Shown here piece by piece: positions 1,654-17,608 of a DNA stretch of 17,608 nt (position 1 is its first letter; each line of letters starts with the position of its first letter). The position numbers and the translations under genes were made by a program. Origin of the DNA: Hyphomicrobiales bacterium (GTDB lineage Bacteria > Pseudomonadota > Alphaproteobacteria > Rhizobiales > Xanthobacteraceae); NCBI GenBank assembly GCA_016201085.1, contig JACQDO010000104.1, forward strand, positions 1 through 17,608, written 5' to 3'. The notes under the pieces were generated by a model. That model was not told the DNA's origin, did no database searches, and saw only the letters and a program-made list of their open reading frames with translations.

Positions 1654-2892
1654 CTACTGCCGCGGCAGCGTCGATGTCGGCGCCGCGCTAGCGCCGCGGA
1701 TCACGTTGTTGCCGTAGGATGTGACGGTGCCGCCGCCGGTGATGGCGAGCTTTTGCCCGGTGCCGATCAGGCTGGACGCCGACAGATACGCGGCGCCGCC
1801 CTGGGCGGACTGCACCGCGAAGCTGGTATGGGTTTCAAACGTCGTGCGGTCGATGACCGCGGTGTTGGCGGCACCACCGGCGCCCTGCACGTTCACGCCG
1901 CCGGCGTTACGGCTAATGACGCTATCCTGCAACAAGAGCTTCGTGCCGCTGGTACCGACCAGATTGATGCCATTGCCGGTGAAGCCGTGGATCGAGCTGC
2001 GGCGAATGACCACGCTACCGCTGCCGATGATGTTGACGCCGTGCACGCCGCTTCCCTGGCCTTCGATATCGATGCCTTGCAGGACGATCTTATCGTTGAC
2101 GCCGGCATTGACGGTAATGCCATTGCACGCCGCCACCTGCACGCCGGCGGTGCCGGCCACACAGAGGATGGATATCGACTTCGCGATAGTCACGACGCCA
2201 AAGTTGGAGCCATCCATGCAATTGATCTCGCCGCCAGCCGCGGTCTTGGACAGCGCGCCGGCGAAGGTCGAACATGGCGCCACCAGGGTGCAATCGTTGC
2301 TGTCGCTGCCGGCGCCGGAAACCCAGGTCTGCGAGGCTAGCGGCGCGCTACCGCCGGAATTGACCGTGAGCGCGGCATTCCGGGTCTGATCGCCTTGACC
2401 ATTCGTGGTGTTGGCGAAACTGACGGTAGCGTTGTAGCCGCCGATCGGCAGGCTGTTGGCGTTCGAATTGACCGTAAAGGTTATCGTCGTCGGCGAAGTG
2501 GTCAGGGTGCCGGATGCCGACGATGCGCTGAGCCAGCTCGGCAGCCCGGTGATCGAATACCCGATCACGCCGCTATTGGTGCTCAGCTGATACTGGAACG
2601 ACGCGGGCGAAAAAGGGCCGCCGGGATTCCCCACGCTCGCCATGTTGGTCGCCGGAGTGACCTGGAGAACCGCCGCATCATCGACCACCAGTACGGCGCC
2701 GATCGTCAATGCCGTCGTGCTGCTGGTCGTATCGTTGAATACGATCGTCGCCGTGTAAATTCCCGGCGACAGAGCGTTGGCATTCGAATTGACGGTAAAG
2801 CTCACCGGCGTCCCGCCGGTTGTCGCGGTGCCGGAGGTCGATGACGGGGTCAGCCAGGTTGGAACGCCGGTGATGGAGTAATTCTGCGACAC
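1654..2892 (-). CDS. C-terminal part of the broken S8 protease: BACON/Ig-like repeats plus right-handed beta-helix domain
   Basis: The open frame is 412 codons from a GTG at 2892. That GTG lies inside a domain and gives no signal peptide, so it is unlikely to be a true start. Reading the same frame further upstream to about 3045 gives the end of the subtilase domain (PRIRLDAALAAL) and the start of the first repeat. Order of parts: repeat 1 (to residue 73), repeat 2 (about 74-178), then the beta-helix domain (about 183-412). The beta-helix domain has an opening TWVSGAGSDSNDC/APC motif, short degenerate rungs rich in G, V, I and N (GVNIIGSGSVVIRRSSIHGF) and an ending YGNNVIRGASAA. It is closely similar to the 257-residue neighbour at 4657-5430. 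Right-handed beta-helices commonly bind or cleave polysaccharides, but no catalytic site is recognisable here. As an independent gene it would be cytoplasmic and truncated; as part of the protease it would be an exported C-terminal module. Confidence 0.8.
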   Translation of the reverse strand: MSQNYSITGVPTWLTPSSTSGTATTGGTPVSFTVNSNANALSPGIYTATIVFNDTTSSTTALTIGAVLVVDDAAVLQVTPATNMASVGNPGGPFSPASFQYQLSTNSGVIGYSITGLPSWLSASSASGTLTTSPTTITFTVNSNANSLPIGGYNATVSFANTTNGQGDQTRNAALTVNSGGSAPLASQTWVSGAGSDSNDCTLVAPCSTFAGALSKTAAGGEINCMDGSNFGVVTIAKSISILCVAGTAGVQVAACNGITVNAGVNDKIVLQGIDIEGQGSGVHGVNIIGSGSVVIRRSSIHGFTGNGINLVGTSGTKLLLQDSVISRNAGGVNVQGAGGAANTAVIDRTTFETHTSFAVQSAQGGAAYLSASSLIGTGQKLAITGGGTVTSYGNNVIRGASAAPTSTLPRQ

Positions 2893-2991
2893 CGGAGACG
2901 CCGTCAGCGTGTAATTGAAGGACGCAGGCGCAAACGGACCGCCCTGCGGACCGCCCGTTTGAATGTCCGTGTTTGGCGATACGGCGATCGA
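2359..2991 (-). repeat. Two tandem BACON/Ig-like protein repeats of about 105 residues
   Basis: Repeat 1 is encoded at 2991-2674 and repeat 2 at 2673-2359. Shared landmarks in order are V-x-P near the start, GGPF-PASF, then YSITGxPxWL, S-x-S-x-SGT, FTVNSNAN and GxYxAT. The YSITG-x-P-x-W-L core resembles BACON and related Ig-like adhesive domains seen in secreted bacterial proteins. They probably act as a spacer between the protease and the beta-helix domain. Confidence 0.75.
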
Positions 2992-4406
2992 GCCGGGGGC
3001 GTTGCAATTGAGGGCCGCGAGCGCGGCATCGAGACGAATGCGCGGCCCGCCACGTGCGGGGTGGCCATCGAGGTGCCGGCTGCGCAGGCGTAGAAAGCTG
3101 TCGTTGCACTGGAAATATCGGCGTACGACGACATGATATCCAAGTTGTTGGCGCCAAATTGGCAGTTCCCACCCGCCGAACCGCCCGGCGCGAGTAGCGC
3201 GACGATGGTCGCCATATTGGAGAAGGAGGAGACGACGTCGCTTTTGGTCGTCGACCCGACCGCCACCGCGCTCGAGATGCAGGCCGGATGGCTGATCGTT
3301 GTTTTATCACCATCATTGCCGGAAGCGATCGCGGTCAGCACGCCGGCGGCCCGTAAATTGTCAATCGATGTTTTTTGTAAGTCGCTGTCGCATGCCGAGG
3401 ATGTATTCGGCCCGCCACCGAGGCTCATATTGACCGAGGCGACGTTTACGCCGGCAACCGGCGTGAGGTGCTGGTAGATATAGTCGAGGGCGCGAACCTG
3501 ATCCGAGTCGTATGAGGCGACGCACGGTGCCGCGCTCGGGTTGCAATCGCTCGCGCTGTTGAAGCGCGTGAACACCTGGATGGCGAAAATCTTGCCGTCG
3601 CGGGCCACGCCGTTGATCGGCTCGCCTGAGTTCTGGCTGGTGTTGAGGCCGGCGGCGATGCCGGCGACGTGCGTACCGTGCCAGCAAAGATTGGACGAAC
3701 CGTTGATGCAAGCGGCCGTGGTCGAGTTGGCCGAGCCACCCCCGGTTTGCGAGCTCAGGCCGTTCGGGCACAGCGACACGTTGCCGCCAAAGCCATTGGC
3801 ATTGGAAAAACAGGCCTCGGCAACCACCTTGCCGCTGAGAAATTCATGATTCGACTGCACCCCGGTATCGAGCACCGCGACCGCCCAGCCGGCACCGGTG
3901 GCGCCGTTGCTGTAGGCCGTCGGCTGACCGATCAGCGGCACGCTCTGCAACAGCAGCGGCGGCCTGGCGCGGTCGATATTGATGCTCTTGACCTGCGGAT
4001 CGGCGGCGAGGGCTTCCAGCTCCGCGACATCCACATTGATGGCGAATCCGGGCGTGATCTCGAAACGGCTGTGCTGGCGGGTGAAGCCCTGGCCCTGACG
4101 CAGATTTCTCGCATCGCCGAAGTGCCTCGCGAGAACCGTGTCTTGTATAGCGGCGACCTGCGCTTTGGCCGTCGCGATAGCCGCCGCATCGGGCCTGGCC
4201 TGATTGGCGATGGCGGGGGCATTCAAAAGCACGATCACGCGCACTTGGCCGTTCGTCTGCGCCATCGTGGCGATCGAGCCCGCCTCCGGCGCTTTGCTCG
4301 CCAAAGCGGTTGAAACCTGTTGTGCATGTCCCAAATGGACGCCGGCGACGAGCGCGAGCGTGGTAACGCCCGCCGCAATCGCGGCACGGATATGTCGCAT
4401 CATCAT
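2904..4406 (-). CDS. Secreted subtilisin-like serine protease (S8), frame broken after the catalytic serine
   Basis: Numbering starts at the ATG at 4406, chosen over a GTG at 4463 because it puts Met-Met-Met-Arg-His directly before a hydrophobic signal peptide that ends at about GHA-QQ. The parts are an I9-type propeptide (about residues 55-155), then the S8 catalytic domain. The triad is Asp180 in VAVLDTG, His243 in HGTHVAG and Ser446 in GTSMATPHVAG, with oxyanion Asn364 in SGND. Paired cysteines in the catalytic domain fit an extracellular enzyme. After Gly454 (about 3045) the frame changes to an Arg/Pro/Ser-rich tail of 46 residues unlike any protease. The proper continuation (PRIRLDAALAAL) lies in another frame, and the roughly 40 residues normally between the two are absent. 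So this is a protease whose last helices and C-terminal modules have been cut off. Location next to the T2SS operon suggests it was an exported substrate. Confidence 0.85.
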   Translation of the reverse strand: MMMRHIRAAIAAGVTTLALVAGVHLGHAQQVSTALASKAPEAGSIATMAQTNGQVRVIVLLNAPAIANQARPDAAAIATAKAQVAAIQDTVLARHFGDARNLRQGQGFTRQHSRFEITPGFAINVDVAELEALAADPQVKSINIDRARPPLLLQSVPLIGQPTAYSNGATGAGWAVAVLDTGVQSNHEFLSGKVVAEACFSNANGFGGNVSLCPNGLSSQTGGGSANSTTAACINGSSNLCWHGTHVAGIAAGLNTSQNSGEPINGVARDGKIFAIQVFTRFNSASDCNPSAAPCVASYDSDQVRALDYIYQHLTPVAGVNVASVNMSLGGGPNTSSACDSDLQKTSIDNLRAAGVLTAIASGNDGDKTTISHPACISSAVAVGSTTKSDVVSSFSNMATIVALLAPGGSAGGNCQFGANNLDIMSSYADISSATTAFYACAAGTSMATPHVAGRAFVSMPRSRPSIATPPARSPYRQTRTFKRAVRRAVRLRLRPSITR

Positions 4407-4594
4407 GTCGATAGACCGAATCCGAGCATCGTTGCCGAACGCACTCTGGCCGAATACCGGCACAAGTTAACGACTCACCGCCCAGTTTGTTCGAGCATGC
4501 ACAAGGTAACGGCGATCGCCAAAGATGTACCGGTCAATCTGCCGGTGGTCCTCAGCGAATCGTCGTGGCTTGCAGCTAATCGCATATGCGGAAA

Positions 4595-4629
4595 CCCTGC
4601 AACAACCCCCTTTCGGGGTCGTTGCAGGG
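4595..4629 (-). terminator. Hairpin terminator of the 257-residue beta-helix gene
   Basis: A near-perfect inverted repeat: CCCTGCAAC (4595-4603) pairs with GTTGCAGGG (4621-4629), and ACCCC (4605-4609) with GGGGT (4615-4619), around a five-base loop with one A/C mismatch. It lies 28 bases past the stop at 4657. On the minus strand it is followed by only a short T run (TTTCC), so Rho-independent termination may be imperfect. Confidence 0.75.
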
Positions 4630-4656
4630 TCGGGAACGCACAAAGATCGAATTCGC

Positions 4657-5430
4657 CTACTGCAACGGCAACGCCGGCGGCAACGCCGCGCTGGCTCCGC
4701 GAATGACGTTATTGCCGTAGGTCTGGATGGCGCCGGTTCCGGAGAGGACGACTTTCGTACCGGTGCCGATCAAATTCGATAGCGACATGACCCCGGTGCC
4801 GCCTTGGGCAATTTGGAACGCGAAGTTCGTGTGGGTCTCGATCGTCACACGGTCGATAGTCCCTGTACTGGCAACGCCGCCAGAGCCCTGCACATTGACA
4901 CCGCCGCCATTATTGGAAATGACGGAATCCTGCACCAAGACCTTAGCGCCGGCGACCGAGTTGACTAGATTGACGCCATTGCCTGAGAAGTGGTGGATCG
5001 TGCAACGGCGGATGATCACGTTGCCGCCGGTGAGTATATTCACGCCGTGCAAACCAGTCCCCAAACCTTCGATATCGAGACCGATGAGGATGACTTCGTC
5101 GGTCGCATTGGGAACATTCACATTGATTGCGCTGGAGCCGCCGCTAATGAGAACGCCCGCTTCGACGAATTCAGCGCGCAGCGTGATCGGCTTGGTGATG
5201 GTCACCGCGCCAAAACCGCCGGGGTCGAGTACGTCGATGGCGCCGCCCGACGCGGTCTTGGAGATGGCGCCGGCAAAGGTCTTGCACGGCGCGGTGCGGC
5301 TGCACGGATTGACGTCGTCGCCGACGCCAGAAATCCAGGTTCGCGTCGCTTGGGCGAATGCCGGTGTAACAAATGACGTGGCGGCGATAGACGTCACGGC
5401 CAGCGCAAACAAAAAGGCGAGTTTTCTCAT
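4657..5430 (-). CDS. Exported right-handed beta-helix protein (257 residues)
   Basis: The N-terminus is a clear Sec signal peptide: MRKL, a hydrophobic core, and a PAFA-QA cleavage site near residue 27. The mature part begins with TWISGVGDD-x-N-x-C and an APCKTFAGAISK segment, where Cys pairs may form a disulfide. It then runs as short beta-helix rungs such as GVNILTGGNVIIRRCTIHHF and VLVQDSVISNNGGGVNVQG and ends with YGNNVIRGASAALPPALPLQ. The ATG at 5430 is supported by GGGAGG five bases upstream. It is a clear paralogue of the C-terminal domain of the broken protease gene, and shares fold and ending with the 330-residue protein at 6518-7510. No catalytic residues can be assigned. The position after (pseudo)gspM-gspN copies suggests an extracellular T2SS substrate, perhaps glycan-binding; this is inference. 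Confidence 0.85.
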   Translation of the reverse strand: MRKLAFLFALAVTSIAATSFVTPAFAQATRTWISGVGDDVNPCSRTAPCKTFAGAISKTASGGAIDVLDPGGFGAVTITKPITLRAEFVEAGVLISGGSSAINVNVPNATDEVILIGLDIEGLGTGLHGVNILTGGNVIIRRCTIHHFSGNGVNLVNSVAGAKVLVQDSVISNNGGGVNVQGSGGVASTGTIDRVTIETHTNFAFQIAQGGTGVMSLSNLIGTGTKVVLSGTGAIQTYGNNVIRGASAALPPALPLQ

Positions 5431-5433
5431 ACG

Positions 5434-5441
5434 GCCCTCCC
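5434..5441 (-). promoter_or_regulatory. Ribosome binding site of the 257-residue beta-helix gene
   Basis: GGGAGGG lies on the minus strand just upstream of the ATG at 5430 with about five bases of spacing. It is one of the best Shine-Dalgarno matches in the window and fixes the start. The 147 bases between this gene and the gspN remnant are A/T-rich, but no convincing -35/-10 pair was found there. Confidence 0.7.
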
Positions 5442-5577
5442 ATAAGTTGATATACTTTTAGCACAGGCGCCGCGTGATAACAGCGGAATGATATAACAAT
5501 TATGTGAACCTTGCCGGACATGGATAGTATTTTCGTAAAAACCGATGGCTCTATTTTTCATCGGCGTAGCATTCCAA

Positions 5578-5987
5578 TTACAGTTGCTCATCGATTTTTT
5601 GTATGACCCGACCATTCCCGCCAGGAGATGGAACAAGTTGCTTCCCGGGCACCGGAAGACGCAGCGTCTCGAGTTGTCGCTCTTTCTCAAGCGTCGCTTC
5701 GCGCGCCTTGACCGAACGAAGAATCCAGCCTGCATGACCCTCCCCGATTCGCAGACGAACGACGTTATGCGTCGATTGATCGAGAAATATGCCGAAACCT
5801 TCGGTTTCGCCGACCACGGTTCCGACCAACACAAGGTTCGGATGCTGCGGCGTGGGGGGAGCGTTTACAACCCTTGGTTGAGCTACTCATCGGGCGACGT
5901 CGCCGCCAGCGTCACCGTTTGCGCGGCCCCGATAAGGCAAAGCCCAGTTATCGCTCCGCAGAGGACTTGGGCGGGCCGGCGCTTCAT
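5578..5987 (-). pseudogene. Decayed second copy of the gspN-like gene, internally deleted
   Basis: The copy starts at the ATG at 5987 (ATGA overlap with the gspM remnant), as in the intact pair. It encodes MKRRPAQVLCGAITGLCLIG, matching the signal peptide of the intact protein, then stops at a TAG (5885-5883) after ATSPDE. Homology resumes in another frame at about 5880 with VVNAPPTPQHPNLVLVGTVVG and continues as the HR-like domain (VVRLRIGEGHAGWILRSV, then LETLRLPVPG) to the TAA at 5578. The linker carrying NPLWAIPLGSLAGTRERPIFS in the intact gene is missing, so roughly 150 bases were deleted out of frame. An 84-codon piece (5832-5578) still encodes an uninterrupted HR-like domain, but it lacks a signal peptide. 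Confidence 0.85.
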
Positions 5988-6331
5988 TTTGTCCCCTTCC
6001 ATTGACCCGTCCGGGATCCGCACGCGGGCGTTACCCGCGACGGTAGACTTTGCGGCGCCTGCACGACCAGCTGGTCGACAAACAAGAACGGCATTCCGGC
6101 TTCCAGGTCGTAGAGCAATTTCTGCAGGTTGGCCTGCTCCATCATCTCGCAACCGATCGGCAAAGTTATATAACCATCTTTGGCTTTCGGCCGCCGCAAG
6201 TTCACCGGCGAAGACTGCACGCTGCCGCCAACTTGCGCGATGGCGCCCGCTACCCACTGCAAAAGCGCGGCGTCACCTAGCGCTAGCGTGACATTGCCGA
6301 TGAATATGGTCTCAGGCGGATAGTAGGTCAA
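5984..6331 (-). pseudogene. Decayed second copy of gspM, 3' half only
   Basis: Encodes a near-copy of residues 80-187 of the intact GspM at 8296-8859. Shared strings include VAGAIAQVGGSVQSS, LLYDLEAG (LYDLEAG in the intact copy) and FLFVDQLVVQ, and both end GQWKGTK. The N-terminal cytoplasmic and membrane-spanning half is absent; an in-frame TAG lies just upstream of the first codons. The tail between QAPQ and GQWKGTK is out of frame relative to the intact gene, showing small indels. A one-codon insertion (EMMEQ for EMEQ) is also visible. Without the membrane anchor it cannot act as GspM. Confidence 0.87.
5985..6320. repeat. Diverged direct repeat of 8297-8625 (gspM 3' end and gspN 5' end)
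   Basis: The two segments align over their whole length in the same orientation at nucleotide level, with the copies about 2.3 kb apart. The longest exact match I found by eye is 35 bases (6058-6092 against 8379-8413), and 5986-6008 against 8298-8320 is another of 23 bases. Retained DNA-level identity implies a fairly recent duplication. Confidence 0.85.
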
Positions 6332-6473
6332 TTTTAGCTATCAATTCTCAGCGTCTCGAAATGCATGGGCGAACGGTTGCATTACTCAGTCCTGCATAAG
6401 TACCACAACGTGATCAAAACAATTGCGAAGGAAATGCGGCCTCGGCAGCCACCGATTGTCGCACAAAAACGCT

Positions 6474-6505
6474 GCGCCCCGGGCGACCGAGGTCACCCGG
6501 GGCGC
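6474..6505 (-). terminator. Rho-independent terminator of the 330-residue beta-helix gene
   Basis: A perfect ten-base-pair G/C stem: GCGCCCCGGG (6474-6483) with CCCGGGGCGC (6496-6505). A further GAC/GTC inner stem lies in the loop. It starts 12 bases past the stop at 6518. On the minus strand it is followed by AGCGTTTTTG, giving the T run expected of an intrinsic terminator. Confidence 0.88.
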
Positions 6506-6517
6506 CAGACTGCAACA

Positions 6518-7510
6518 TCACTTCAGATTAACCGAGAACAGCGCGGCACCGTCATCGGCATTGAATTGCACGACATTGTTGCCATACGAGAAAACATTGC
6601 CGTTGTTGACCATGTTCACCGCCAAGGAATGACCCATCACCGTTGCCCCGTTGAGTACGATCTGGGCGTTCCCCCCGTTGGCAAGGAGCCCGGTGGTCGA
6701 GTTCAGCACATCGGTGTTCTCGACCACGACTCGGGCAGTGCCGCCACCGGAGACGGGCGCGACCGCGGTGATCGTTCCACCCGGCGTTTTGGTGATGATG
6801 CTGTTTGACACCAGGGTGCGCACAAATCCGGTCGTCAGCGTAGCGTCCGAACGCACGCCCTGACTGCCACAATGATGAATCTGGCTGTTCTTGACTGCGA
6901 CGGTCGGCGCCACCGAACCGCCTTGCGGCTTGACGCTAAGACAGGTCGTGTTGAGCTCGGCGATGTCGGAGTCGATGATATAGACGTCGGGATCGGCGGT
7001 ACCGGCCAATGGCCAAACCTGCACGCCGTTTCCATTAAAGCCACGAACTTGCGTATTGTGCAGTTCAAGTCGACCGACCTGCTGGACGTTGATCCCGTTC
7101 TGGCCGGCTTGGCCGTTGCCGCCGAGCCAGACATCGAAGAACTTCACCGAGGCGTTTGCTCCGGGGACATTGATCGTAATCAGATCGCCGCTGCCACCCG
7201 GGGTCGCATTGTCAGGTGACACGATGATGACAGCCTGGCTACCTGATACTCGGAATATTGTGCTCGCAGTGACGCTGACATTTTCCTTCCAGCCGCCGCT
7301 ACTGATAAAAATTACATTCTGCACGCCCCCTAAGCCACTGGCCACGCTCTGCGCGTGGCCGATGGTCAAGCACGGTGAAGAAGGGGTGAGACAATCGTTG
7401 GCATCATTTCCCCCCTTGGAAAGGAATACAAAGCCCGCCGAAGCCATCGTTGCCGTGCCGCAAAGAAATGCCGCCGCGCCGGCAGCAGTGATCAACCTGT
7501 GAATCATCAT
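6518..7510 (-). CDS. Exported right-handed beta-helix protein (330 residues)
   Basis: A Sec signal peptide (MMIHRLITAAGAAAFLCG, cleavage near TMASA-GF, about residue 25) leads into FLSKGGNDANDC and SPCLTIGHAQS. These correspond to the opening motif of the two other beta-helix proteins. Rungs rich in G, V, I and N follow, e.g. GINVQQVGRLELHNTQVRGF and VYIIDSDIAELN. The end is YGNNVVQFNADDGAALFSVNLK, sharing YGNNV with its paralogues. The ATG at 7510 is preceded by AGGGGG seven bases upstream; the second ATG is equally possible. It lies 126 bases after gspN with a candidate promoter of its own, so it may be transcribed both from the T2SS operon and independently. Substrate and activity are unknown; secretion through the T2SS is inferred from position and signal peptide. 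Confidence 0.85.
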   Translation of the reverse strand: MMIHRLITAAGAAAFLCGTATMASAGFVFLSKGGNDANDCLTPSSPCLTIGHAQSVASGLGGVQNVIFISSGGWKENVSVTASTIFRVSGSQAVIIVSPDNATPGGSGDLITINVPGANASVKFFDVWLGGNGQAGQNGINVQQVGRLELHNTQVRGFNGNGVQVWPLAGTADPDVYIIDSDIAELNTTCLSVKPQGGSVAPTVAVKNSQIHHCGSQGVRSDATLTTGFVRTLVSNSIITKTPGGTITAVAPVSGGGTARVVVENTDVLNSTTGLLANGGNAQIVLNGATVMGHSLAVNMVNNGNVFSYGNNVVQFNADDGAALFSVNLK

Positions 7511-9956: not shown

Positions 9957-10874
9957 TCAGCCATCGAAATCGTCCGTCCAGAATAACACGCGATAGGGGT
10001 CCGGGGCTTCTTCCAGCGGAAGAATAACAGCCTCAGCATTAATACGGCGGCCTTTGGCCAGTTCGACCCGGACCGTTACCCTTATCGCTTTGCTAGCCTG
10101 CAAGGTGGCGCTGGCTTGCGCCGGCCCGAGCAATTGCGGCAGCAACCGGGCGTCCTGGCGCAGTGTGTTGCGCTGATTAAGAACGGCATCGAGACGCTCC
10201 GGCGTCATCCCGGGAAGGGCGGCGATGACCTCGGGTGCGGCGTCCAGGACATTGATCGTGCCCATACCGCTGTAAATCGTCACAAAGGACCTGGCCCGCT
10301 CGATCAAGGCCGGTGGCAAACCGAGCACCAGCCAAAGTTCTTGCACGTGCATGAAAGGACCCAAGCGTGGACCATAGGACAGGCCGGCATTTCGATAAGC
10401 CGTGGTCTCTTTGTCCTCGCTCTGGTCCGCATCGGGATTTGCCGAGAAAGCGGACGTTCGCCAGCCGATGACGCGCTCCGCGTAATTCTTTGCCGCGTCG
10501 GACGATGCACCGAGCGCTCTGAACAAGCCCTCCAGCAAAGGCTGAGGCGCCGAGTTGAGATCGATTCTGGCTGCTTCGGACTTGAAATCCACCGCGACAT
10601 CCGACCTGCCGAGGTGGAAGTTGAACGTGCCGCTGCTGGGGCGTTCTTCCAGCTTCACCGCGCTTAAGTAATAGGCCGTCAGTTCGAGCGCCGCCGACGC
10701 GGAGGCGTTGGCTTGCATGCGGTCGTTATTGACCTCGACGCTGGTCGCGGCATTGACGACATACAGCGCGTAGATCGCCGCCAGCACTGCCAGTCCGCCG
10801 AGAATCCACAGCACGGCGACGAGAATAAACCCGTCGTTTGATTTTCGGCTGCGCTTGGGTGCCGCTGACGCCAT
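9957..10874 (-). CDS. gspK: T2SS minor pseudopilin GspK
   Basis: 305 residues. A prepilin leader ends at SNDG, followed by FILVAVLWILGGLAVLAAIY. The mature start has Phe at +1 but Ala rather than Glu at +5, as is typical of GspK, the pseudopilin at the tip. The large periplasmic part has the Asp/Asn-rich LNSAPQPLLEGLF and INVLDAAPEVIAALPGM motifs of the GspK helical domain. It forms the tip complex with GspI and GspJ. The ATG at 10874 is one base after the TAA of a 14-codon ORF that begins on the gspJ stop. The ribosome binding site is weak (GGGT), so coupling from upstream may matter. Confidence 0.92.
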   Translation of the reverse strand: MASAAPKRSRKSNDGFILVAVLWILGGLAVLAAIYALYVVNAATSVEVNNDRMQANASASAALELTAYYLSAVKLEERPSSGTFNFHLGRSDVAVDFKSEAARIDLNSAPQPLLEGLFRALGASSDAAKNYAERVIGWRTSAFSANPDADQSEDKETTAYRNAGLSYGPRLGPFMHVQELWLVLGLPPALIERARSFVTIYSGMGTINVLDAAPEVIAALPGMTPERLDAVLNQRNTLRQDARLLPQLLGPAQASATLQASKAIRVTVRVELAKGRRINAEAVILPLEEAPDPYRVLFWTDDFDG

Positions 10875-10875
10875 G

Positions 10876-10920
10876 TTAGGACCCGGTCACGTGTTTGCCT
10901 CGCGCCGCCACATCGTTCAT
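10876..10920 (-). CDS. Tiny 14-codon bridging ORF between gspJ and gspK
   Basis: An ATG at 10920 overlaps the gspJ TGA (ATGA) and reads MNDVAARGKHVTGS to a TAA at 10878-10876. The gspK ATG follows one base later (TAACATG). The ORF exactly fills the gap between gspJ and gspK, so it may carry ribosomes across by termination-reinitiation rather than make a useful peptide. Such a fit can also arise by chance. I do not recognise the peptide. Confidence 0.3.
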   Translation of the reverse strand: MNDVAARGKHVTGS

Positions 10921-11633
10921 TTGCCGGGATTGGAGGCGGCGGGTGGCGCATTGGCCGGCGGATAAATACACGCCTTGGCATCCGTCGCGCGGGCGCATTC
11001 CGCCGGCGCGCCGACACGCAGGACGGTGGCCGTCGACACCGCCAGCGTGCGTTGCGTCGCCGCATCGCGAACCGATACACGAATGGCGACAGGCAACTGG
11101 TCCGCGTCGCGCCAGTCGTTCCGCCAGACGTGATCGGGGCCCGCATAAGAAAATATCGCCCGATAAGGCGCGCGCATGAACACCACCGGGTCGGAGAAAT
11201 TCGCCAGGTCGCGAAGTTTGGCGTTCACGGCAAGCGGCGCGAACGGGCGGCGCGCGCGCACCAAGGCCAGGCCACGATTATCGGACATTGTCGAGATACT
11301 CACCACTTCCAGTCCGGGCCGCGTGTTGGGCCCGATTGCCGTTCGCACGAAACGCACGGCGAGCTCATCGCCCTCGAACAACGGCTGCTTGGCCTTGCCG
11401 TTCGCCGTGACGAATTCCGCCGCCGAGAGATCGGCGACCAGACGTTCGAGACCCAGCCCGAGAAGTTCCGCCCGCTGCACATGCGCGAAGCCGCGATTCC
11501 AGTTCGGCAGCCATTGCGCCGTCACGCTGGCAAGCGCGGCCAGGATTCCGACCATCAGGACCAATGCGACCAGCATCTCGAACAGGGAGAACCCCGCCTT
11601 GGCGTCCGGCTGCCGGTGCTGGCGCTTGCTCAT
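10917..11633 (-). CDS. gspJ: T2SS minor pseudopilin GspJ
   Basis: The ATG at 11633 (overlapping the gspI stop as ATGA) gives 238 residues with a short basic leader, MSKRQHRQPDAKAG, cut before FSLFEMLVALVLMVGILAAL. Phe +1 and Glu +5 are the class III signal-peptide residues read by prepilin peptidase. A longer open frame to 11783 is antisense-style extension through gspI and is not used. The periplasmic part fits GspJ (LERLVADLSAAEF, then a beta-rich region). GspJ packs with GspI and GspK at the pseudopilus tip. The C-terminal tail is Ala/Pro-rich with two Cys (AECARATDAKACIYPP). Confidence 0.92.
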   Translation of the reverse strand: MSKRQHRQPDAKAGFSLFEMLVALVLMVGILAALASVTAQWLPNWNRGFAHVQRAELLGLGLERLVADLSAAEFVTANGKAKQPLFEGDELAVRFVRTAIGPNTRPGLEVVSISTMSDNRGLALVRARRPFAPLAVNAKLRDLANFSDPVVFMRAPYRAIFSYAGPDHVWRNDWRDADQLPVAIRVSVRDAATQRTLAVSTATVLRVGAPAECARATDAKACIYPPANAPPAASNPGK

Positions 11634-12037
11634 TCCGCTGGCCTGCGTCCGAGCCGCACGGTGGTGACGGAGAATCGCGTTCCGCCCGGCGTTTGCACCG
11701 TGATCGCCGCCGTCAGCGGCACCCAAGGCGTGGGCGCCTTTGCGTCGAGCGCGCCGGGGAAGGGTCGCACATCGATCCGCCAAAGCTGGCCGTCTCTTTC
11801 TCCGGACAGCATACCGACGGTGAGGTTGTTGCGGTCCGGAAGCCCCACTTCGATAGCGCGCGCCGTCTCCACCAGCACCAGGTGATCGTCGAGCGCTTGC
11901 GTGCCACGCACGGCAACGCCGACCAGCGAACCAACCGATAATAAAATCGCGGCGATCACCGCCAAGGTGACGACCACCTCGATCAGCGTGAAACCGGCGG
12001 AGCCGGGCGCGGGCCTAGAGGGCGTTAAGCGGCACAA
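11630..12037 (-). CDS. gspI: T2SS minor pseudopilin GspI
   Basis: The TTG at 12037 is chosen because GGAGG lies eight bases upstream and it gives a short leader (MCRLTPSRPAPGSAG) cut before FTLIEVVVTLAVIAAILLSV, with Glu at +5. An ATG at 12088 in the same frame would need a 74-base overlap with gspH and has no comparable signal. The mature protein is about 120 residues, usual for GspI: a helix, then a small sheet with WRIDVRPFPG and a VPLTAAITVQTPGG end. It partners GspJ and GspK in the tip complex. The start overlaps the gspH end by 23 bases. Confidence 0.88.
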   Translation of the reverse strand: MCRLTPSRPAPGSAGFTLIEVVVTLAVIAAILLSVGSLVGVAVRGTQALDDHLVLVETARAIEVGLPDRNNLTVGMLSGERDGQLWRIDVRPFPGALDAKAPTPWVPLTAAITVQTPGGTRFSVTTVRLGRRPAE

Positions 12038-12491
12038 TTTCAACGCCTCCGGTGAGCCAATTGACGCGAATTTGGTAGCCAGCGCCAAGCCGCGTCAGCG
12101 CGATAACGCCGCCGCACGACATGCCGGAGGCGAAAAACACGATGGTGGAACCGGCCTCGCGTTGATTGCAACGACTGGCCATAGCCGCATCGAATTGCAC
12201 GTCGTTCGGTACGCGCACGGCGCGCGCCGAGGCGCCCGAGCGCACCGATCGACCGATCGCGTCGATTTCGGTCGCGGTCGCGATGTGTCGACGGATGGCC
12301 GCATTGCGGTCGGCCTTGAGCAACGTGGCGATCTCCAGCGCATAGGCTTGCAGCCTCGAGCGCGAGGTGCCGCGCGGAATCTCCGGCAGCAGAATGGCGG
12401 CGACCAGCGCGATGATGGCGAGAACGCAAACGACTTCGATGAGAGTGAAGCCACCCTCGCCCGCGGCGCGCTCAGCGGGTCCAGCTGGCAA
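12015..12491 (-). CDS. gspH: T2SS minor pseudopilin GspH
   Basis: The class III leader ends at AAGEGG, followed by FTLIEVVCVLAIIALVAAIL with Glu +5. The beta-rich C-terminal part (VIALTRLGAGYQIRVNWLTGGVEIVPLNAL) fits GspH, which joins the pseudopilus shaft to the tip. The start is uncertain. The frame is open to a codon at 12584 inside gspG, but that would give an overlong leader. The TTG at 12491, which overlaps the gspG end by 20 bases, gives a leader of 14 residues (MPAGPAERAAGEGG) and is preferred, although its ribosome binding site (GGGA) is weak and distant. An ATG at 12536 is the alternative. Confidence 0.85.
   Translation of the reverse strand: MPAGPAERAAGEGGFTLIEVVCVLAIIALVAAILLPEIPRGTSRSRLQAYALEIATLLKADRNAAIRRHIATATEIDAIGRSVRSGASARAVRVPNDVQFDAAMASRCNQREAGSTIVFFASGMSCGGVIALTRLGAGYQIRVNWLTGGVEIVPLNAL
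12046..12050 (-). promoter_or_regulatory. Ribosome binding site that decides the gspI TTG start
   Basis: GGAGG on the minus strand, inside the end of gspH, is eight bases before the TTG at 12037. No equally good signal precedes the in-frame ATG at 12088. Confidence 0.6.
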
Positions 12492-12930
12492 TATCGGCGG
12501 CGGTTCCCGAGCCGCCCTCCTGACCGTCGGAGCCATAGGACATGATATCATAGGGGCCGTGCTCGCCGGGCGAACGATAAACATAGGCCTTACCCCATGG
12601 ATCGGCGGGCAGCACGCCGCCTTTCAGATAAGGACCGTTCCACGATGGAACCGTTCCCGGGGATTGCACCAGCGCCGTCAAGCCTTCCGATGTGGACGGA
12701 TAACGGCCGGTATCGAGATTGAACAGATCGAGCGCGCTGCCAAAGCTCTGTATTTGAATTTTGGCGGCCTTGACTTTCGATTCTCCGAGATAATTGAGCA
12801 CGCGCGGGCCGACCAAACTCATGATCAGAGCGATGATGGCAATGACGACCAGAATTTCGATCAGCGTGAAACCGCCCTCGCCGCGCGCGCGTTTTAGACG
12901 TTCTCTTATGCTCGCAAGCCTCACCATCAT
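12472..12930 (-). CDS. gspG: T2SS major pseudopilin GspG
   Basis: 152 residues with leader MMVRLASIRERLKRARGEGG cut before FTLIEILVVIAIIALIMSLVG (Glu +5). The rest is a textbook GspG: YPSTSEGLTALV, the DPWGKAYVYRSPGEHG block and the calcium-binding loop near YDIMSYGSDGQEGG. Repeated assembly of this protein forms the pseudopilus that pushes substrates through the secretin. AGGGGG directly before the ATG at 12930, overlapping the end of gspF, supports the start; the second ATG is equally usable. It lies six bases after the gspF stop. Confidence 0.97.
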   Translation of the reverse strand: MMVRLASIRERLKRARGEGGFTLIEILVVIAIIALIMSLVGPRVLNYLGESKVKAAKIQIQSFGSALDLFNLDTGRYPSTSEGLTALVQSPGTVPSWNGPYLKGGVLPADPWGKAYVYRSPGEHGPYDIMSYGSDGQEGGSGTAADIASWTR

Positions 12931-12936
12931 GTCCCC

Positions 12937-14151
12937 CTACTCGATGATTTGGGTGACCGACAGCAGAGCGGTCATCACGGAAACGATCAGACCGCCGACA
13001 ATAGCACTGATGAGGATTATCGCAATTGGACCGGTGACGCCGACAATTCGATCGAGACTGCGCTGCAGCTTCGCCTCGTAGAATTCGGCCACGTTACCGG
13101 CGAGCACCGGCAACTGCCCGGTTTCCTCACCGATGCGTAACATGCGAATGGCCATCGCCGGCAGCAGCGTGGTATCGGCAAGCGCATCCGATAATTTCCC
13201 GCCGTGCCGCACCCGATCCACCGCCTTGTTCCAGATCGCCGCGTTGTCGGTCGATCCAAGCATATCGACAAGAATGCGAAGCGTCGTGGTAAGCGCAACG
13301 CCGCTGCCGAGAAGTACGCCGAGATTGCGACAAAACAAGGCGGTGTAGTGCAGCCGTAAGACGGGGTTCAAGAACGGCAACCGCGTCAGCAGGCCGACGA
13401 TCTTGGCGCGCACGCTGGCGCGCCGCAGCACCAGCCAGCCGCCAAGAATGAGACCAATGGCGCCCGCTTCTATAAATTCGAGGTGCGCGCGCACGAATTT
13501 CGACAGACCGAAAAGCGTCGCCACAATGGGATCGAGCTTGGCGTTGAAGTCCTGCAGCACCGCCGCGAATTGCGGAATAACGAACAGAAGAAAGAACGTC
13601 AGCACACCGCAGGCGGCGAACAGCACGAAGGCCGGATAGCGCAAGGCATCCGCCACCTTGCGCCGCATCGCCTCGGCGCGATTGCGTTCGCTGCCCAGCA
13701 CGTCGAGCACGTAGTCAAGCGCGCCGGACGCCTCGCCGACGCGTACCAGCGCGATATACATCGCCGGGAACAAGGTCGGATGATGCGCCAGCGCTTCCGA
13801 AAAGCTTTCGCCGGCCAGCACGCGGCCCCTGATCTGGGCGACCACCGAACGCAGCCGCCCGATGTCGATGTCGACGGCCAGCAGATCGAGCGCGTCGTCG
13901 ATACGGGCCCCTGCCTTGAGCAGCAGCGCCAGATCGCGGGTGAAAACGGTGACGTCCTCGGCGCGCGGCCGCGATAACAACGAAAGATTCAGACGCTCTT
14001 TGTAACCGCCGCCCGCCTCGGTCACGGTCTCGATCGGCACCAGGCCGAGAAATTCGATGCGATTGGCGACTTCCGCGGCGGTGGGCGCCGTGATCGATCC
14101 GCTCACCAATTCGCCGCTTTGCGTGATGGCGCGGTACCGGTAATTTGGCAA
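12937..14151 (-). CDS. gspF: T2SS inner-membrane platform protein GspF
   Basis: 404 residues from a TTG at 14151, giving MPNYRYRAITQSGELVSGS, the usual GspF beginning. GGAG sits six bases upstream, and the TTG starts one base after the gspE stop. An earlier TTG at 14163 is possible. Two T2SF domains can be seen: the first with FTRDLALLLKAGARIDDAL and FPAMYIALVRVGEASG (about 65-190), the second with HYTALFCRNLGVLLGSGVAL and LLPAMAIRMLRIGEETGQLP (about 265-385). Hydrophobic helices occur at about 165-190, 220-240 and 375-398. GspF is the central platform protein that couples the ATPase GspE to pseudopilus assembly. Confidence 0.97.
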   Translation of the reverse strand: MPNYRYRAITQSGELVSGSITAPTAAEVANRIEFLGLVPIETVTEAGGGYKERLNLSLLSRPRAEDVTVFTRDLALLLKAGARIDDALDLLAVDIDIGRLRSVVAQIRGRVLAGESFSEALAHHPTLFPAMYIALVRVGEASGALDYVLDVLGSERNRAEAMRRKVADALRYPAFVLFAACGVLTFFLLFVIPQFAAVLQDFNAKLDPIVATLFGLSKFVRAHLEFIEAGAIGLILGGWLVLRRASVRAKIVGLLTRLPFLNPVLRLHYTALFCRNLGVLLGSGVALTTTLRILVDMLGSTDNAAIWNKAVDRVRHGGKLSDALADTTLLPAMAIRMLRIGEETGQLPVLAGNVAEFYEAKLQRSLDRIVGVTGPIAIILISAIVGGLIVSVMTALLSVTQIIE

Positions 14152-14161
14152 GTCAGACTCC
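14149..14161 (-). promoter_or_regulatory. Ribosome binding site and TTG start of gspF
   Basis: GGAG (14161-14158), six bases, then TTG (14151-14149). This lies across the gspE stop (14155-14153) and selects the TTG that produces the family-typical MPNYRYRA start. Confidence 0.6.
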
Positions 14162-15850
14162 AACCGTCGTCACACGGAGAACTTCCGCGGCCGACGTCAC
14201 TCCCATGCGGCATTTGACAATCGCATCGTCGATCATCGACGTCATTCCGGCCTTGGTGGCCGCGCGTTGAATGACTTCCGAGTCGGTGCGCTCCGTGATC
14301 AGATCGCGCACGCTGCCGGTCATTTCGATGATTTCAAAGATACCGCTGCGACCGCGATAGCCGGTGCCGCCGCAGCGATCGCAGCCGTGCGGCTCGTAGA
14401 CCGTGTCGCCGGCGCGGAAGCCGAGCACGGAGAAACGCGGATCGTCGGCGATGTCGTCGGCCTTCAATTTCTTACGCACCTTGCAGCGGTCGCACAGCAT
14501 GCGGACGAGCCGCTGCGCGATGGTCGCGCGCAGGGTCGATTTAAGCAGGAAGCCCTCGACCCCGAGATCCAACAGGCGCGGCAGCGCCGCCGCCGCCGTT
14601 TCGGTGTGCAATGTCGTCAGCACCAGGTGGCCGGTGAGCGCGGCATGCACCGCGATATTGGCGGTCTCGGCGTCGCGAATTTCGCCGACCATGATCACGT
14701 CGGGGTCTTGGCGCACGAAAGAGCGCAGCGCCGAGGCGAAGGTCAAGCCGATGGACGGCTTCACCTGCGATTGATTGACCCCATGCAGCTCGTACTCGAC
14801 GGGATCTTCGATGGTCAGGATCTTGCGATGCGGCTGATTGAGGATCGACAGCATCGTCGCCAGCGTCGTCGTTTTACCGCTTCCGGTCGGGCCGGTGATG
14901 ATGATCATGCCGTGCGGCAGCGACAGCAGATGCTGCATTCTCGGTTCGTCTTTATCCGACAGTCCGAGCTTGGCGAACTCGAGCAAGCCACGATCGCGCG
15001 GCAAAAGCCTGACGACGGCCGACTCGCCATGCTGGGTCGGCATGGTGGCGACGCGGATATCGATTTCCGACCCCGCCACGCGCAGGCGTGCGGCGCCGTC
15101 CTGCGGCAGACGGCGTTCGGAAATATTCAGCCCGGATAAAATCTTGATGCGCGAGATCAGCGCATGCGGCAGTGCGCCCGCCGGAGGTGCGACCGCGCGC
15201 AGCAAGCCATCGACCCGCATGCGAACGACGAGACCGTTGCGGAACGGCTCGATGTGGATGTCGCTCGCCCGCAACTCCATCGCTTTTTCGAGCAGATCGT
15301 TGACGGCGCGCACGATGGGCGCGCCGCTGGCGAGATCGCGCAGATTCTCGATGTCATTCTCGGCATGCGCGGTAGTGGCTGCGGCGGCTTCCGGCTGGGC
15401 AAGATCGTCGTCGCCGATGCGCGCCGTCAGCACGGTGGCGACATCCTCGAACGAGGCGACCGTAACGGTCACCGGCGCGCCCAGCACGATTTCCGCCGCG
15501 CGCACGGGCGCCCCGTCGTTGGGGTCCGTCACCGCTATGACATACCGTCCGTCCGCCGTCTCAAAGGGAAAGACCGACATTTCCCGCAAAAAGCGCGGTG
15601 AAAAACGTCCGACGATCGCCGCGGCTTCCATGAGCTGCGCCAGGTTCATGCGGGCGATACCATGAAAGCGCGCCACCTCATCGGCGAAGTCGTTCGCCGA
15701 CAAATCGGTCAACTCCCATAATCTTCGCAGCGTTTGACCCGAGCCGGGAACATTGCGGGCATCGAGTTTTGCAATCACGTCGCCGGCAATGAGATTCCGG
15801 CCGACCAAATACTTGGCGAAACCTTCCGCGTTATTTGAGGAACCATCCAT
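14153..15850 (-). CDS. gspE: T2SS assembly ATPase GspE
   Basis: 565 residues. The N-terminal domain (about 1-150) includes an N1E-like region that binds GspL. The C-terminal ATPase core has SDIHIEPF (196-203), Walker A GPTGSGKT (320-327), the Asp box TIEDPVEY (346-353), Walker B VGEIRDAETA (388-397), the His box (about 408-416, LTTLHTE) and the tetracysteine zinc motif (CDRC at 453-456 and CDRC at 490-493). It hydrolyses ATP in the cytoplasm to drive pseudopilin assembly. As first gene of the minus-strand operon it starts at the ATG at 15850. No clear Shine-Dalgarno sequence is near; GAGG lies 14 bases upstream. Confidence 0.98.
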   Translation of the reverse strand: MDGSSNNAEGFAKYLVGRNLIAGDVIAKLDARNVPGSGQTLRRLWELTDLSANDFADEVARFHGIARMNLAQLMEAAAIVGRFSPRFLREMSVFPFETADGRYVIAVTDPNDGAPVRAAEIVLGAPVTVTVASFEDVATVLTARIGDDDLAQPEAAAATTAHAENDIENLRDLASGAPIVRAVNDLLEKAMELRASDIHIEPFRNGLVVRMRVDGLLRAVAPPAGALPHALISRIKILSGLNISERRLPQDGAARLRVAGSEIDIRVATMPTQHGESAVVRLLPRDRGLLEFAKLGLSDKDEPRMQHLLSLPHGMIIITGPTGSGKTTTLATMLSILNQPHRKILTIEDPVEYELHGVNQSQVKPSIGLTFASALRSFVRQDPDVIMVGEIRDAETANIAVHAALTGHLVLTTLHTETAAAALPRLLDLGVEGFLLKSTLRATIAQRLVRMLCDRCKVRKKLKADDIADDPRFSVLGFRAGDTVYEPHGCDRCGGTGYRGRSGIFEIIEMTGSVRDLITERTDSEVIQRAATKAGMTSMIDDAIVKCRMGVTSAAEVLRVTTVGV

Positions 15851-15937: not shown

Positions 15938-16027
15938 ACAATGTAAGCTTGTAAGCCGTTAGCGCCGGTCTTGGCTAACGCAGGGTGCGTAACTGGGGCA
16001 ACTTCTTTGCCGATCATCGGTGGTTTT

Positions 16028-17608
16028 GTGCGTTTGTGTCGGTCGGTTCGCATGGGACCGCTGGGTATCCTTGTCATGGTCGCCGGCACGACGCTGGCCG
16101 GATGCAATTATTTAATCCCGGACAACGCGCAAAACCGCTCGCCGAATATAATCGACCAAACGCAATCGATCGATCTGCTGCCGCGCTTTCCGCAGCCAAG
16201 CGAGCCGGTGACGGCCAACCGTGCAAAAGATCCTCGCAGCGCCGTCTACAATGGCGCGGCCGAGCAGGCGGAGAACACGCCCGCGGTGACGCTGCAAGGC
16301 GCCGAACCGTCGGCCAGCGGCGATGGGTTCGACCTCAATTTCGAAAACGCGCCGGTGACCACCGTCGCCAAGGTTATTCTCGGAGACATACTCGGCACCG
16401 GATACATCATCGATCCGCGCGTACAAGGTACCGTCACGCTGACCTCGGGACGCCCCGTTCCCAAGAGTGAGGTCCTCTACGTCCTCGAAAGCGCGCTGCG
16501 AGTCAGCAATGTCGCGCTCATCCGCGACGCCAATGGATATCGGCTGGTTCCTGGCAATGAGGCGGTCGCCAGCGGACGTCTCGATGTCGCCACGGCAAAC
16601 GGTCGTCCGCAAGCGGGCTACGGGGTCAGTGTCGTGCCTGTGCGATTTGTGGCGGCCCCCACCCTTATCAAGTTGCTGGATAATTTTGCGGTCAAACAAG
16701 GCACGCTACGGGTCGATACGGCCCGCAACATGATCATCGTCCAAGGCACCGGGCCGGAACGCCGATCGGCCATCGAAACCGTGCTCAATTTCGATACCGA
16801 TTGGATGCGCGGCCAAACGGTTGGCGTTTTTCCCGTACGTCACAGCACTCCGGAAGCGCTCATTACGGAAGTTGAGAAAATCATGGATTCCGGCGAAGGC
16901 GGCCTCAGCCAGAATCTTGTCAAGATGCAGCCGATCGCTCGGCAGAACGCCATCCTGGTTGTCACCAGTAAACCGTCATTGCTCAAGACCGCGCAGAACT
17001 GGATTCGCCGCCTCGACAATTCGGAAATTTCCAGTACCGGCGTGAAAGTTTACCGCATCAGATACGGTGACGCGCGTTATATAGCCAAAATATTGAACGA
17101 CATGTTTGGAGCGGGCGGCGCTTCGGGCGGCAGCATCGATTCGGCATCGAGTCAGATTGCGCCGGAAGCGGGCTTGACGACGACCTCAAGCGGCGCCGGC
17201 GGTTCAACCGCGATTACTCCCGCCGAACGACTGACCGGCGGTCCGGCACTGAGCCGGCAAGCTAACGCGGATAATCAAACGCCCAGCGGCGGCTCGCGCG
17301 CGCTGAGCGGTGCGCGCGGCGCTGCGGGGGCGGCGTCATTGTTGCCGAATATCCGCATCACCGCCGACGTGACCAATAATTCGCTGTTGATATACGCCAA
17401 CGAAGAAAACTACCGTATTATCGAAGGAGCGCTGCGCCAGATCGACCGGCCGCAGCTGCAGGTCGCCTTCGATGCGACCATCGCCGAGGTTTCGCTGAAC
17501 GACAGCCTGACCTATGGCGTTCAGTTTTTCCTGAAAAGCAGCAATGTCGGCGCCCCGCCCGATACCGGCTCGGCCATCAATACCATCGGCACCAGCGCGA
17601 TTCTGGGC
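16028..17608 (+). CDS. gspD: T2SS outer-membrane secretin GspD, lipoprotein (3' end outside window)
   Basis: Open without a stop to the window end (527 codons). The GTG at 16028 is preferred over the ATG at 16052 because it adds the basic residues MRLCRSVRM before the hydrophobic core. A lipobox LAGC with Cys26 (16103-16105) suggests a lipid-anchored secretin that may reach the outer membrane without a separate pilotin. Domains: N0 (about 98-179, FDLNFENAPVTTVAKVILGD), N1 (about 200-264, VVPVRFVAAPTLIKLLD), N2 (about 265-335) and N3 (about 338-475), then the start of the secretin core (QLQVAFDATIAEVSLNDSLT). N3 is split by a Gly/Ser/Ala-rich insert of roughly 80 residues (about 360-440), as often seen in secretins. 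GspD forms the gated outer-membrane channel. It is transcribed away from gspE, separated from its partner genes. Confidence 0.95.
   Translation, partial: MRLCRSVRMGPLGILVMVAGTTLAGCNYLIPDNAQNRSPNIIDQTQSIDLLPRFPQPSEPVTANRAKDPRSAVYNGAAEQAENTPAVTLQGAEPSASGDGFDLNFENAPVTTVAKVILGDILGTGYIIDPRVQGTVTLTSGRPVPKSEVLYVLESALRVSNVALIRDANGYRLVPGNEAVASGRLDVATANGRPQAGYGVSVVPVRFVAAPTLIKLLDNFAVKQGTLRVDTARNMIIVQGTGPERRSAIETVLNFDTDWMRGQTVGVFPVRHSTPEALITEVEKIMDSGEGGLSQNLVKMQPIARQNAILVVTSKPSLLKTAQNWIRRLDNSEISSTGVKVYRIRYGDARYIAKILNDMFGAGGASGGSIDSASSQIAPEAGLTTTSSGAGGSTAITPAERLTGGPALSRQANADNQTPSGGSRALSGARGAAGAASLLPNIRITADVTNNSLLIYANEENYRIIEGALRQIDRPQLQVAFDATIAEVSLNDSLTYGVQFFLKSSNVGAPPDTGSAINTIGTSAILG

What the first reader, a model, noticed from the sequence alone, without database searches (positions are those of the whole stretch)
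1654..7510. Cluster of three exported beta-helix modules attached to the end of a T2SS operon
Two stand-alone signal-peptide proteins (7510-6518 and 5430-4657) and the C-terminal domain of an S8 protease (to 1654) share an opening motif with Cys, the same rung style and a YGNNV ending, and all follow gspN on the same strand. T2SS substrates are often encoded beside their machinery. This looks like a locally expanding family of dedicated T2SS cargo, with the beta-helix either free or acting as a C-terminal module, possibly the secretion-recognition part. The family link is seen directly; secretion by this T2SS and a recognition role are inference.
Basis: partly seen in the sequence, partly recalled or inferred. 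Interest (0 to 1): 0.72.

Follow-up and report, generated by a model that had tools for sequence, protein, structure and literature searches.

The report
T2SS-linked beta-helix cargo gene cluster
Beside the genes of a bacterial protein-export machine sit several genes for exported spiral-shaped (beta-helix) proteins; related genes recur next to the same kind of machine in other bacteria and as tail pieces on secreted enzymes, so they are probably its cargo, though this has not been tested here.

Summary
Two stand-alone proteins (bh1 6518-7510, bh2 4657-5430) and a third module (bh3, 1654-2346, behind two BACON domains) share a two-Cys opening and a YGNNV end; bh1 and bh2 are modelled as beta-helices.

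Corrections: "gspN" looks XpsN/GspC-like; bh1 is only 25-30% identical to the others; the S8 frame breaks near 3045, so bh3 is not fused as assembled; a decayed second gspM-gspC pair lies between bh1 and bh2; a fourth copy (contig C299) ends a sugar dehydrogenase.

Support for T2SS cargo: in 198 family genomes 11 of 17 carriers have GspG against 25 of 181 non-carriers. Without the window, 5 of 10 carriers with GspG have a copy within about 11 kb of gspG (0.16 expected). A single-contig 9.1-Mb genome has three tandem copies after the operon. Related modules occur in S8, S53 and GSDH proteins.

Not shown: "dedicated" (16 of 17 GspG-negative carriers checked also lack GspD over the cut-off), "recognition part" (cap equally conserved without T2SS), and secretion itself. 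Most likely a turnover-prone T2SS cargo family with constant cap and variable rungs.

The parts
15971..17608 (+). gspD (secretin), divergent from the operon, cut by the contig end
   Evidence: TIGR02517 248.6 bits over positions 1-374 of 600, below the cut-off because cut short; open-ended ORF
14153..15850 (-). gspE (secretion ATPase)
   Evidence: T2SSE 3.2e-129, MshEN 1.7e-7
12937..14163 (-). gspF
   Evidence: T2SSF 2.4e-50
12472..12930 (-). gspG (major pseudopilin)
   Evidence: T2SSG 2.8e-41; TIGR01710 154 bits, over the cut-off
9957..12584 (-). gspH, gspI, gspJ, gspK
   Evidence: N_methyl matches, for gspJ below the cut-off; T2SSK_1st 2.2e-9; gspH, J and K found in the same order in L062 and L112
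8296..9923 (-). gspL (8856-9923) and gspM (8296-8859, XpsM type)
   Evidence: PilN 1.3e-14, T2SSM_b 2.4e-27; NF040576 116 bits, cut-off 60
   Evidence: NF041515 GspC 3.5e-8 and T2SSC 0.0043, both below the curated cut-offs; XpsN described as GspC homologue (PMC11981180 passages)
6518..7510 (-). bh1: stand-alone exported beta-helix protein, 330 aa, starting 126 bp after the gspC-like gene
   Evidence: model pLDDT 79.5, pTM 0.82; no Pfam match; 4 homologues besides itself in the protein search
5581..6319 (-). decayed second gspM-gspC pair
   Evidence: gspM 65% over 117 aa; gspC pieces 62% over 39 and 44-45% over 71-79 aa; gspC piece 72.5% over 102 aa to gspC of L062; DNA repeats D3, D5, D7, D8; T2SSM_b 1.8e-17
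4657..5430 (-). bh2: stand-alone exported beta-helix protein, 257 aa
   Evidence: Beta_helix PF13229 26.6 bits, cut-off 25.9; model pLDDT 84.4, pTM 0.79
2904..4463 (-). S8 (subtilase) catalytic ORF; frame lost near 3045
   Evidence: Peptidase_S8 2.8e-26; 75% identity to P0139 up to HVAG
2347..2892 (-). BACON domains, now in another frame than the S8 ORF
   Evidence: BACON_2 6.2e-8, 2 stretches; aligned to P0139
1654..2346 (-). bh3: beta-helix module at the C-terminus of the BACON ORF
   Evidence: 55% identity to bh2; 80% to the module on C299; PF13229 22.5 bits, below the cut-off

Best explanation
The locus is the 3' cargo end of an Xps-like T2SS operon. bh1 and bh2 carry signal-peptide-like N-termini and are most likely exported by Sec to the periplasm, fold there as beta-helices closed by a conserved two-Cys N-cap, and are released or displayed by the adjacent T2SS. 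The same module, often behind Ig-like or BACON domains, also occurs joined to unrelated secreted enzymes (S8 and S53 proteases, GSDH), which would make a T2SS-secreted or surface-held enzyme. The position after the gspC-like gene turns over: different bh lineages occupy it in related genomes, and here a decayed gspM-gspC pair with bh2 behind it lies next to an intact gspC-like gene with bh1 behind it. Shown by calls: homology, predicted fold, linkage, co-occurrence, fusions, relic. Inferred: signal peptides (by eye), secretion by T2SS, the disulfide, and binding of glycans or matrix as the job of the variable rungs.
For: Co-occurrence with GspG: 11 of 17 carriers vs 25 of 181 non-carriers (OR 11.4, p 1e-5) and 8 of 9 vs 35 of 240 (p 3e-6). 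Control in the same 198 genomes: autotransporters against GspG, OR 2.3, p 0.14 (weak, as 167 of 198 have the family). Linkage: leaving the window out, 5 of 10 carriers with GspG have a copy within about 11 kb of gspG, 0.16 expected, p 7e-8; counting Bradyrhizobium once, p 5e-6. The arrangement varies: after the gspC-like gene in L062 and L112 (three copies), beyond gspD in L114, L115 and L116, and an S53-bh fusion beyond gspD and a prepilin peptidase in L117. The linked label needs at least 7 changes forced by well-supported branches of a 124-row tree, so the association was gained or lost several times. Fusions: 44 fusion-sized proteins (473-1286 aa), the query included, hold the module; 5 carry S8, 9 the S53 pro-domain, 3 GSDH.
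Against: Of 17 GspG-negative carriers checked, 16 have no GspD over the cut-off either, so another route, or a periplasmic life, is possible; several of these are draft bins of unknown completeness. 25 of 36 GspG genomes in the family sample have no family member. In 5 of 11 carriers with GspG no linkage was seen. bh1's one strong relative in the family sample (G604, 483 bits) is not near gspG. Cap conservation does not depend on T2SS (0.88 vs 0.89, p 0.63). Genomes are not phylogenetically independent, and the 11-kb limit was chosen after seeing the places. A terminator-like stem (14 pairs) follows bh1, though 8 such sites were found where shuffles give 4.1, so bh2 need not be in the operon. 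No secretion data exist here.
Confidence: 0.68

Rival explanations
1. The flank of the T2SS operon is a landing site for accessory genes of exported proteins; the beta-helix proteins do not use this T2SS but stay periplasmic or leave by another route, as they must in genomes without T2SS.
For: 16 carriers without GspG and GspD over the cut-off; no linkage seen in 5 of 11 carriers with GspG; L112 has another large open frame with Ig- and cadherin-like matches after its bh genes.
Against: It does not explain the genome-wide co-occurrence with GspG, nor linkage at both operon ends in separate lineages.
Confidence: 0.2
2. The module is a ligand- or matrix-binding domain (sugar polymer, own capsule or cell wall) that works outside the cell. 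T2SS exports it, but recognition lies elsewhere, for example in the Ig-like or BACON domains of the fusions or in scattered loops. It can be true together with the cargo reading.
For: Many of the listed fold matches are polysaccharide-acting beta-helices and tailspikes, and some are adhesins. In published work T2SS information lies in an Ig fold (VesB; PMC12369372 passages) or in Fn3 and helix loops (Pel3; PMC7949064 abstract and passages). Distal rungs vary while the cap is constant.
Against: Stand-alone bh1 and bh2 show no Ig or BACON match and still sit beside the T2SS. No conserved catalytic or binding site was looked for in detail or identified. The fold is very common.
Confidence: 0.4
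3. In this particular genome the cluster is decaying or is an assembly mosaic: the S8 gene is split, gspM-gspC is present as a relic, and the genome is in 526 contigs.
For: Frame loss near 3045; relic; completeness 88.57%, 526 contigs.
Against: gspE to the gspC-like gene, bh1 and bh2 are open. The relic is 44-65% identical to the intact genes in protein, too different for a plain assembly duplicate.
Confidence: 0.12

Closest known systems
Beta-helix pectinases secreted by the Out T2SS of Dickeya and Pectobacterium (PelC, Pel3/PelI)
   Same: Parallel beta-helix exported by a T2SS; Pel3 combines an Fn3 domain with the helix (PMC7949064 abstract and passages)
   Different: No sequence match at E up to 1 to any solved chain for the bh2 profile, and for bh1 only 0.037 to the pectin methylesterase PemA; no catalytic residues identified; in Pel3 the helix is the enzyme, while here it is free or fused to other enzymes
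Rhombotarget A (PDB 9cdu, 9cdv)
   Same: Appears among the Foldseek matches of both models (best E 2.5e-3 and 2.3e-2); named as a T2SS substrate of Acinetobacter in one passage of PMC5861075
   Different: 10-17% identity in those rows; the window proteins end without a GlyGly-CTERM-like hydrophobic tail, by reading
Pfam PF13229 Beta_helix
   Same: bh2 passes the cut-off (26.6 vs 25.9 bits)
   Different: bh3 falls below it and bh1 has no match; the two-Cys cap marks this subfamily in our alignments
C-terminal export or surface domains shared by unrelated enzymes (GlyGly-CTERM with rhombosortase, search listing only; T9SS CTD, recalled)
   Same: One C-terminal part on several unrelated enzymes
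   Different: A whole folded module of about 230 residues that also exists free, with no processing motif seen

Membership tests
T2SS substrate | Sec or Tat signal peptide | tested here: inconclusive
   Signal-peptide-like N-termini by eye for bh1, bh2 and S8; no predictor was run
T2SS substrate | Extracellular appearance depends on GspD or GspE | not testable with these tools
   Needs mutants
T2SS substrate | Genome has a T2SS | tested here: met
   gspD, gspE-M and an XpsN/GspC-type gene in the window. Family-wide it is only enriched: 57 of 76 distinct named carrier genomes have GspG over the cut-off
Pfam PF13229 Beta_helix | Score over the gathering cut-off | tested here: inconclusive
   bh2 26.6 (met); bh3 22.5 and bh1 none (not met); cut-off 25.9
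Right-handed parallel beta-helix fold | Stacked coils matching solved beta-helices | tested here: met
Autotransporter (T5SS) | C-terminal beta-barrel PF03797 | tested here: not met
   No such match at E up to 0.1 in bh1, bh2, the bh3 ORF or the S8 ORF
GlyGly-CTERM / rhombosortase target | C-terminal Gly/Ser motif, hydrophobic segment, basic tail | tested here: not met
   C-termini read directly: no hydrophobic segment plus basic tail; no dedicated model was run
GspC (for the 'gspN' gene) | Curated model over the cut-off | tested here: not met
   NF041515 33.5 bits, cut-off 150; T2SSC 17.4, cut-off 27. The homology region and position fit XpsN, so 'works like GspC' is inference
XpsM-type GspM | NF040576 over the cut-off | tested here: met
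   116.2 bits, cut-off 60
S8 protease with C-terminal BACON-beta-helix | One open frame from catalytic domain to helix | tested here: not met
   Frames differ in the window; intact relatives P0134, P0135 and P0139 exist

The most novel reading that the evidence does not exclude
The beta-helix is a portable T2SS cargo module with a constant part (signal peptide and two-Cys cap) and interchangeable distal rungs, and it turns over together with GspC, a T2SS component implicated in substrate contact (EpsC of Vibrio, PMC12369372 passages). Here the relic gspC resembles the near relative L062's gspC (72.5%) and bh2 shares L062's bh N-terminus (80% over 45 residues) but not its rungs, while the intact, divergent gspC-like gene (55% to L062) is paired with the distant bh1. 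If so, gspC-bh pairs are matched units and the module alone could route enzymes through the T2SS.
Probability: 0.18. Interest if true: 0.85.

Novelty: new variant of a known kind. Interest (0 to 1): 0.6.

Why it matters
How the T2SS recognises folded cargo is an open question: PMC7949064 (abstract, passages) calls substrate recruitment elusive, and PMC12369372 (passages) speaks of the lack of a universal linear signal. A domain that exists free beside the machine and also as a part of at least three unrelated enzyme classes gives natural domain swaps to test. It also bears on Bradyrhizobium: one genome paper judged the T2SS of two strains non-functional because gspC was missing (PMC4070871 passages); an unrecognised XpsN/GspC-type gene may be the reason (inference; those two strains were not examined here).

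Tried and rejected
Rejected: (a) bh1, bh2 and bh3 as one recent local expansion: the tree puts bh3 with the C299 copy, bh2 next to that pair, and bh1 elsewhere. (b) Cap as a T2SS-specific signal: equally conserved without T2SS. The loci were partly chosen by a cap pattern, which inflates cap conservation; on 26 rows that cover the cap, from whole-profile search or the window's genome, the contrast remains (0.80 vs 0.42-0.53). (c) Autotransporter passenger: no PF03797 match. (d) Phage origin: no PHROGs match at E 0.01 for the three ORFs, which is no proof. (e) Known enzyme: the bh2 profile has no solved relative at E up to 1; bh1 has four weak ones, the best three pectin methylesterase PemA sequences at 0.037.

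Limits and rows dropped. The protein search for bh2 scored only 7999 candidates and showed 120; the fusion search scored 7993. Many flanks are short, so 'unlinked' is not proof of no linkage; linkage is by tblastn, L033 shows only part of gspD, and a 118-residue, 32% gspE match in L110 was not counted. In the tree L114, L116 and L118 were dropped as duplicates of other loci. L123 (G625) was labelled 'no T2SS'; later found a GspD there (66% complete genome). The tree is a quick one with SH-aLRT only. For the GspD check I gave 17 of the 26 GspG-negative carriers; left out were G492 (apparently the same genome as G592) and eight with sub-cut-off GspG matches. Of the 16 without GspD over the cut-off, 14 have sub-cut-off secretin matches, which I take for other secretins (recall). 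GspD was not searched in the rest of the samples. The class sample (2 of 240, one the window's own genome) had no paired GspG search. With the bh1 profile 13 of 198 family genomes match, all of them also carriers by A2. Literature: ten searches of an open-access library, lists cut at 10-25 rows; none of the listed titles and abstract beginnings describes this family beside a T2SS.
Full report
WHAT IS THERE. The window is contig C268 of an unnamed 3.66-Mb genome (526 contigs, 88.57% complete). Its genus is probably Pseudolabrys: a same-genus genome (G592) has a contig of 3,450,436 bases, the same length as that of Pseudolabrys sp. Root1462 (inference). The 'gspN' product has a weak GspC homology region (NF041515 3.5e-8, T2SSC 0.0043, both below the curated cut-offs). 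XpsN of Xanthomonas is now regarded as a GspC homologue (PMC11981180, passages), while the GspN studied in Acinetobacter is AsmA-like (PMC12802150, abstract). I therefore read the gene as XpsN/GspC-type; this is inference.

(1) The S8 reading frame is lost just after the catalytic-serine motif, near 3045, and the BACON-bh part continues in another frame; compared with P0139 about 39 residues are absent by my count. Intact proteins of this architecture exist (P0134, P0135, P0139). (2) Between bh1 and bh2 lies a decayed second gspM-gspC pair (about 5581-6319). Its gspC piece is 72.5% identical over 102 aa to gspC of the near relative L062 (whose gspE is 92% identical to the window's), but only 44% to the window's intact gene, which is itself 55% identical to L062's. 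(3) A fourth copy on contig C299 ends a GSDH-Ig-BACON protein of 817 aa; its module is 80% identical to bh3.

DISTRIBUTION AND T2SS. With a 29-row profile (A2), members at E up to 1e-10 occur in 9 of 249 genomes of the order, 17 of 198 of the family and 2 of 240 of the class, the window's own genome counted in each. GspG over the cut-off occurs in 43 of 249 and 36 of 198. Carriers have it in 8 of 9 and 11 of 17; non-carriers in 35 of 240 and 25 of 181 (p 3e-6 and 1e-5; without the window 1.8e-5 and 3.5e-5). In 76 distinct carrier genomes from a separate, partly overlapping scan 57 have GspG over the cut-off (40 of 48 and 18 of 29, one genome in both; two loci were not held). As a control, autotransporters against GspG give OR 2.3, p 0.14. 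Against exclusivity: of 17 GspG-negative carriers checked for GspD, only one (G625) has it over the cut-off. So 16 carriers seem to lack a T2SS; several are draft bins, but the Phyllobacterium sp. 628 record is titled a complete genome.

LINKAGE. In the family sample, leaving the window out, 5 of 10 carriers with GspG (G651, G143, G749, G667, G633) have a copy within about 11 kb of gspG; 0.16 are expected (the limit was chosen after the fact). G651, one contig of 9.1 Mb, has three copies after gspE...gspC on the same strand; L062 has one about 200 bp after gspC; L114, L115 (genus of G143, apparently Bradyrhizobium) and L116 have theirs beyond gspD; L117 has an S53 (pro-kumamolisin) protein of 1267 aa with the module near its C-terminus, beyond gspD and a prepilin peptidase. 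Of 80 named loci 21 have gsp genes within the fetched flanks: 18 titled Bradyrhizobium, one Bradyrhizobiaceae, one Xanthobacteraceae and one Hyphomicrobiales bin. On a 124-row tree the linked label needs 10 changes, at least 7 forced by well-supported branches. bh1's strong relative in G604 is not near gspG.

ARCHITECTURE. Among 127 family ORFs in 101 loci (window included) three are clear multi-domain fusions (C299, bh3's ORF, L117); five other long ones have an N-terminal extension of about 90-110 residues, perhaps an early start codon. A length-matched protein search found 44 fusion-sized proteins, the query included: 5 with S8, 9 with the S53 pro-domain, 3 with GSDH, others with Kelch, TIG, Ig-like or GH113 and GH123-like matches. 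P0127 carries an HELGH metal-site-like motif by eye and no peptidase match in Pfam. In P0134, P0139 and P0127 the helix is at the C-terminus; I did not check the place in all 44.

CONSTANT CAP, VARIABLE RUNGS. Positions 21-80 are 83-95% conserved in blocks of 20, positions 121-240 32-52%. On 26 cap-covering rows from whole-profile search or the window's genome the figures are 80% and 42-53%, and the Cys pair is present in 26 of 26. Carriers with and without T2SS do not differ in the cap (0.88, n 94; 0.89, n 18, one of them mislabelled; p 0.63). bh2's first 45 residues match L062's bh best of all loci (80%), yet L062's bh is not found with the C-terminal half of bh2 at E 1e-3. This suggests rung exchange behind a constant start; it rests on one pair of loci.

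HOW IT MOST LIKELY WORKS. Sec export, periplasmic folding under the cap, export by the neighbouring T2SS, and an outside role in which the variable rungs bind a polymer. Only the anatomy and the association with T2SS are shown. In two studies the T2SS information sits in an Ig fold or in several loops of an Fn3-plus-helix enzyme (PMC12369372 passages; PMC7949064 abstract and passages), so in the fusions the BACON or Ig domains may matter as much as the helix. A rhizobial proteome paper lists a different parallel beta-helix repeat protein as PrsDE-exported (T1SS), in a strain where it found no T2SS components (PMC2275737 passages): the fold alone does not imply T2SS.

VERDICT. New variant of a known kind.

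Noticed in passing
window 5581-6319 (-): Decayed gspM-gspC pair whose gspC piece is nearer to gspC of L062 than to the window's own intact gene; hints at replacement of the operon end.
   Followed up: partly
window 7637-8314 (-): The gene called gspN is XpsN/GspC-like; a published statement that two Bradyrhizobium strains lack gspC (PMC4070871) may reflect a missed XpsN-type gene.
   Followed up: partly
L004 2607-5060 (-): GSDH-Ig-BACON-beta-helix protein on another contig of the same genome, with a module 80% identical to bh3.
   Followed up: yes
P0127 and P0128: Two fusion proteins (HELGH-bearing and GSDH) whose longest contigs have the same length, 6770; they may be neighbouring genes.
   Followed up: no
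L062 162-809 (-): Another ORF matching the bh1 profile (E 1.1e-17) at the other end of the same T2SS operon.
   Followed up: no
G667: Thirteen family matches in one 5.2-Mb genome that also has GspG; a strong expansion.
   Followed up: no
window 496-1335 (-): Glycosyltransferase family 11 gene (1.8e-31) downstream of the cluster.
   Followed up: no
L038 and L049: A record titled Klebsiella pneumoniae MAG carries two family members; perhaps a mislabelled or contaminated bin.
   Followed up: no
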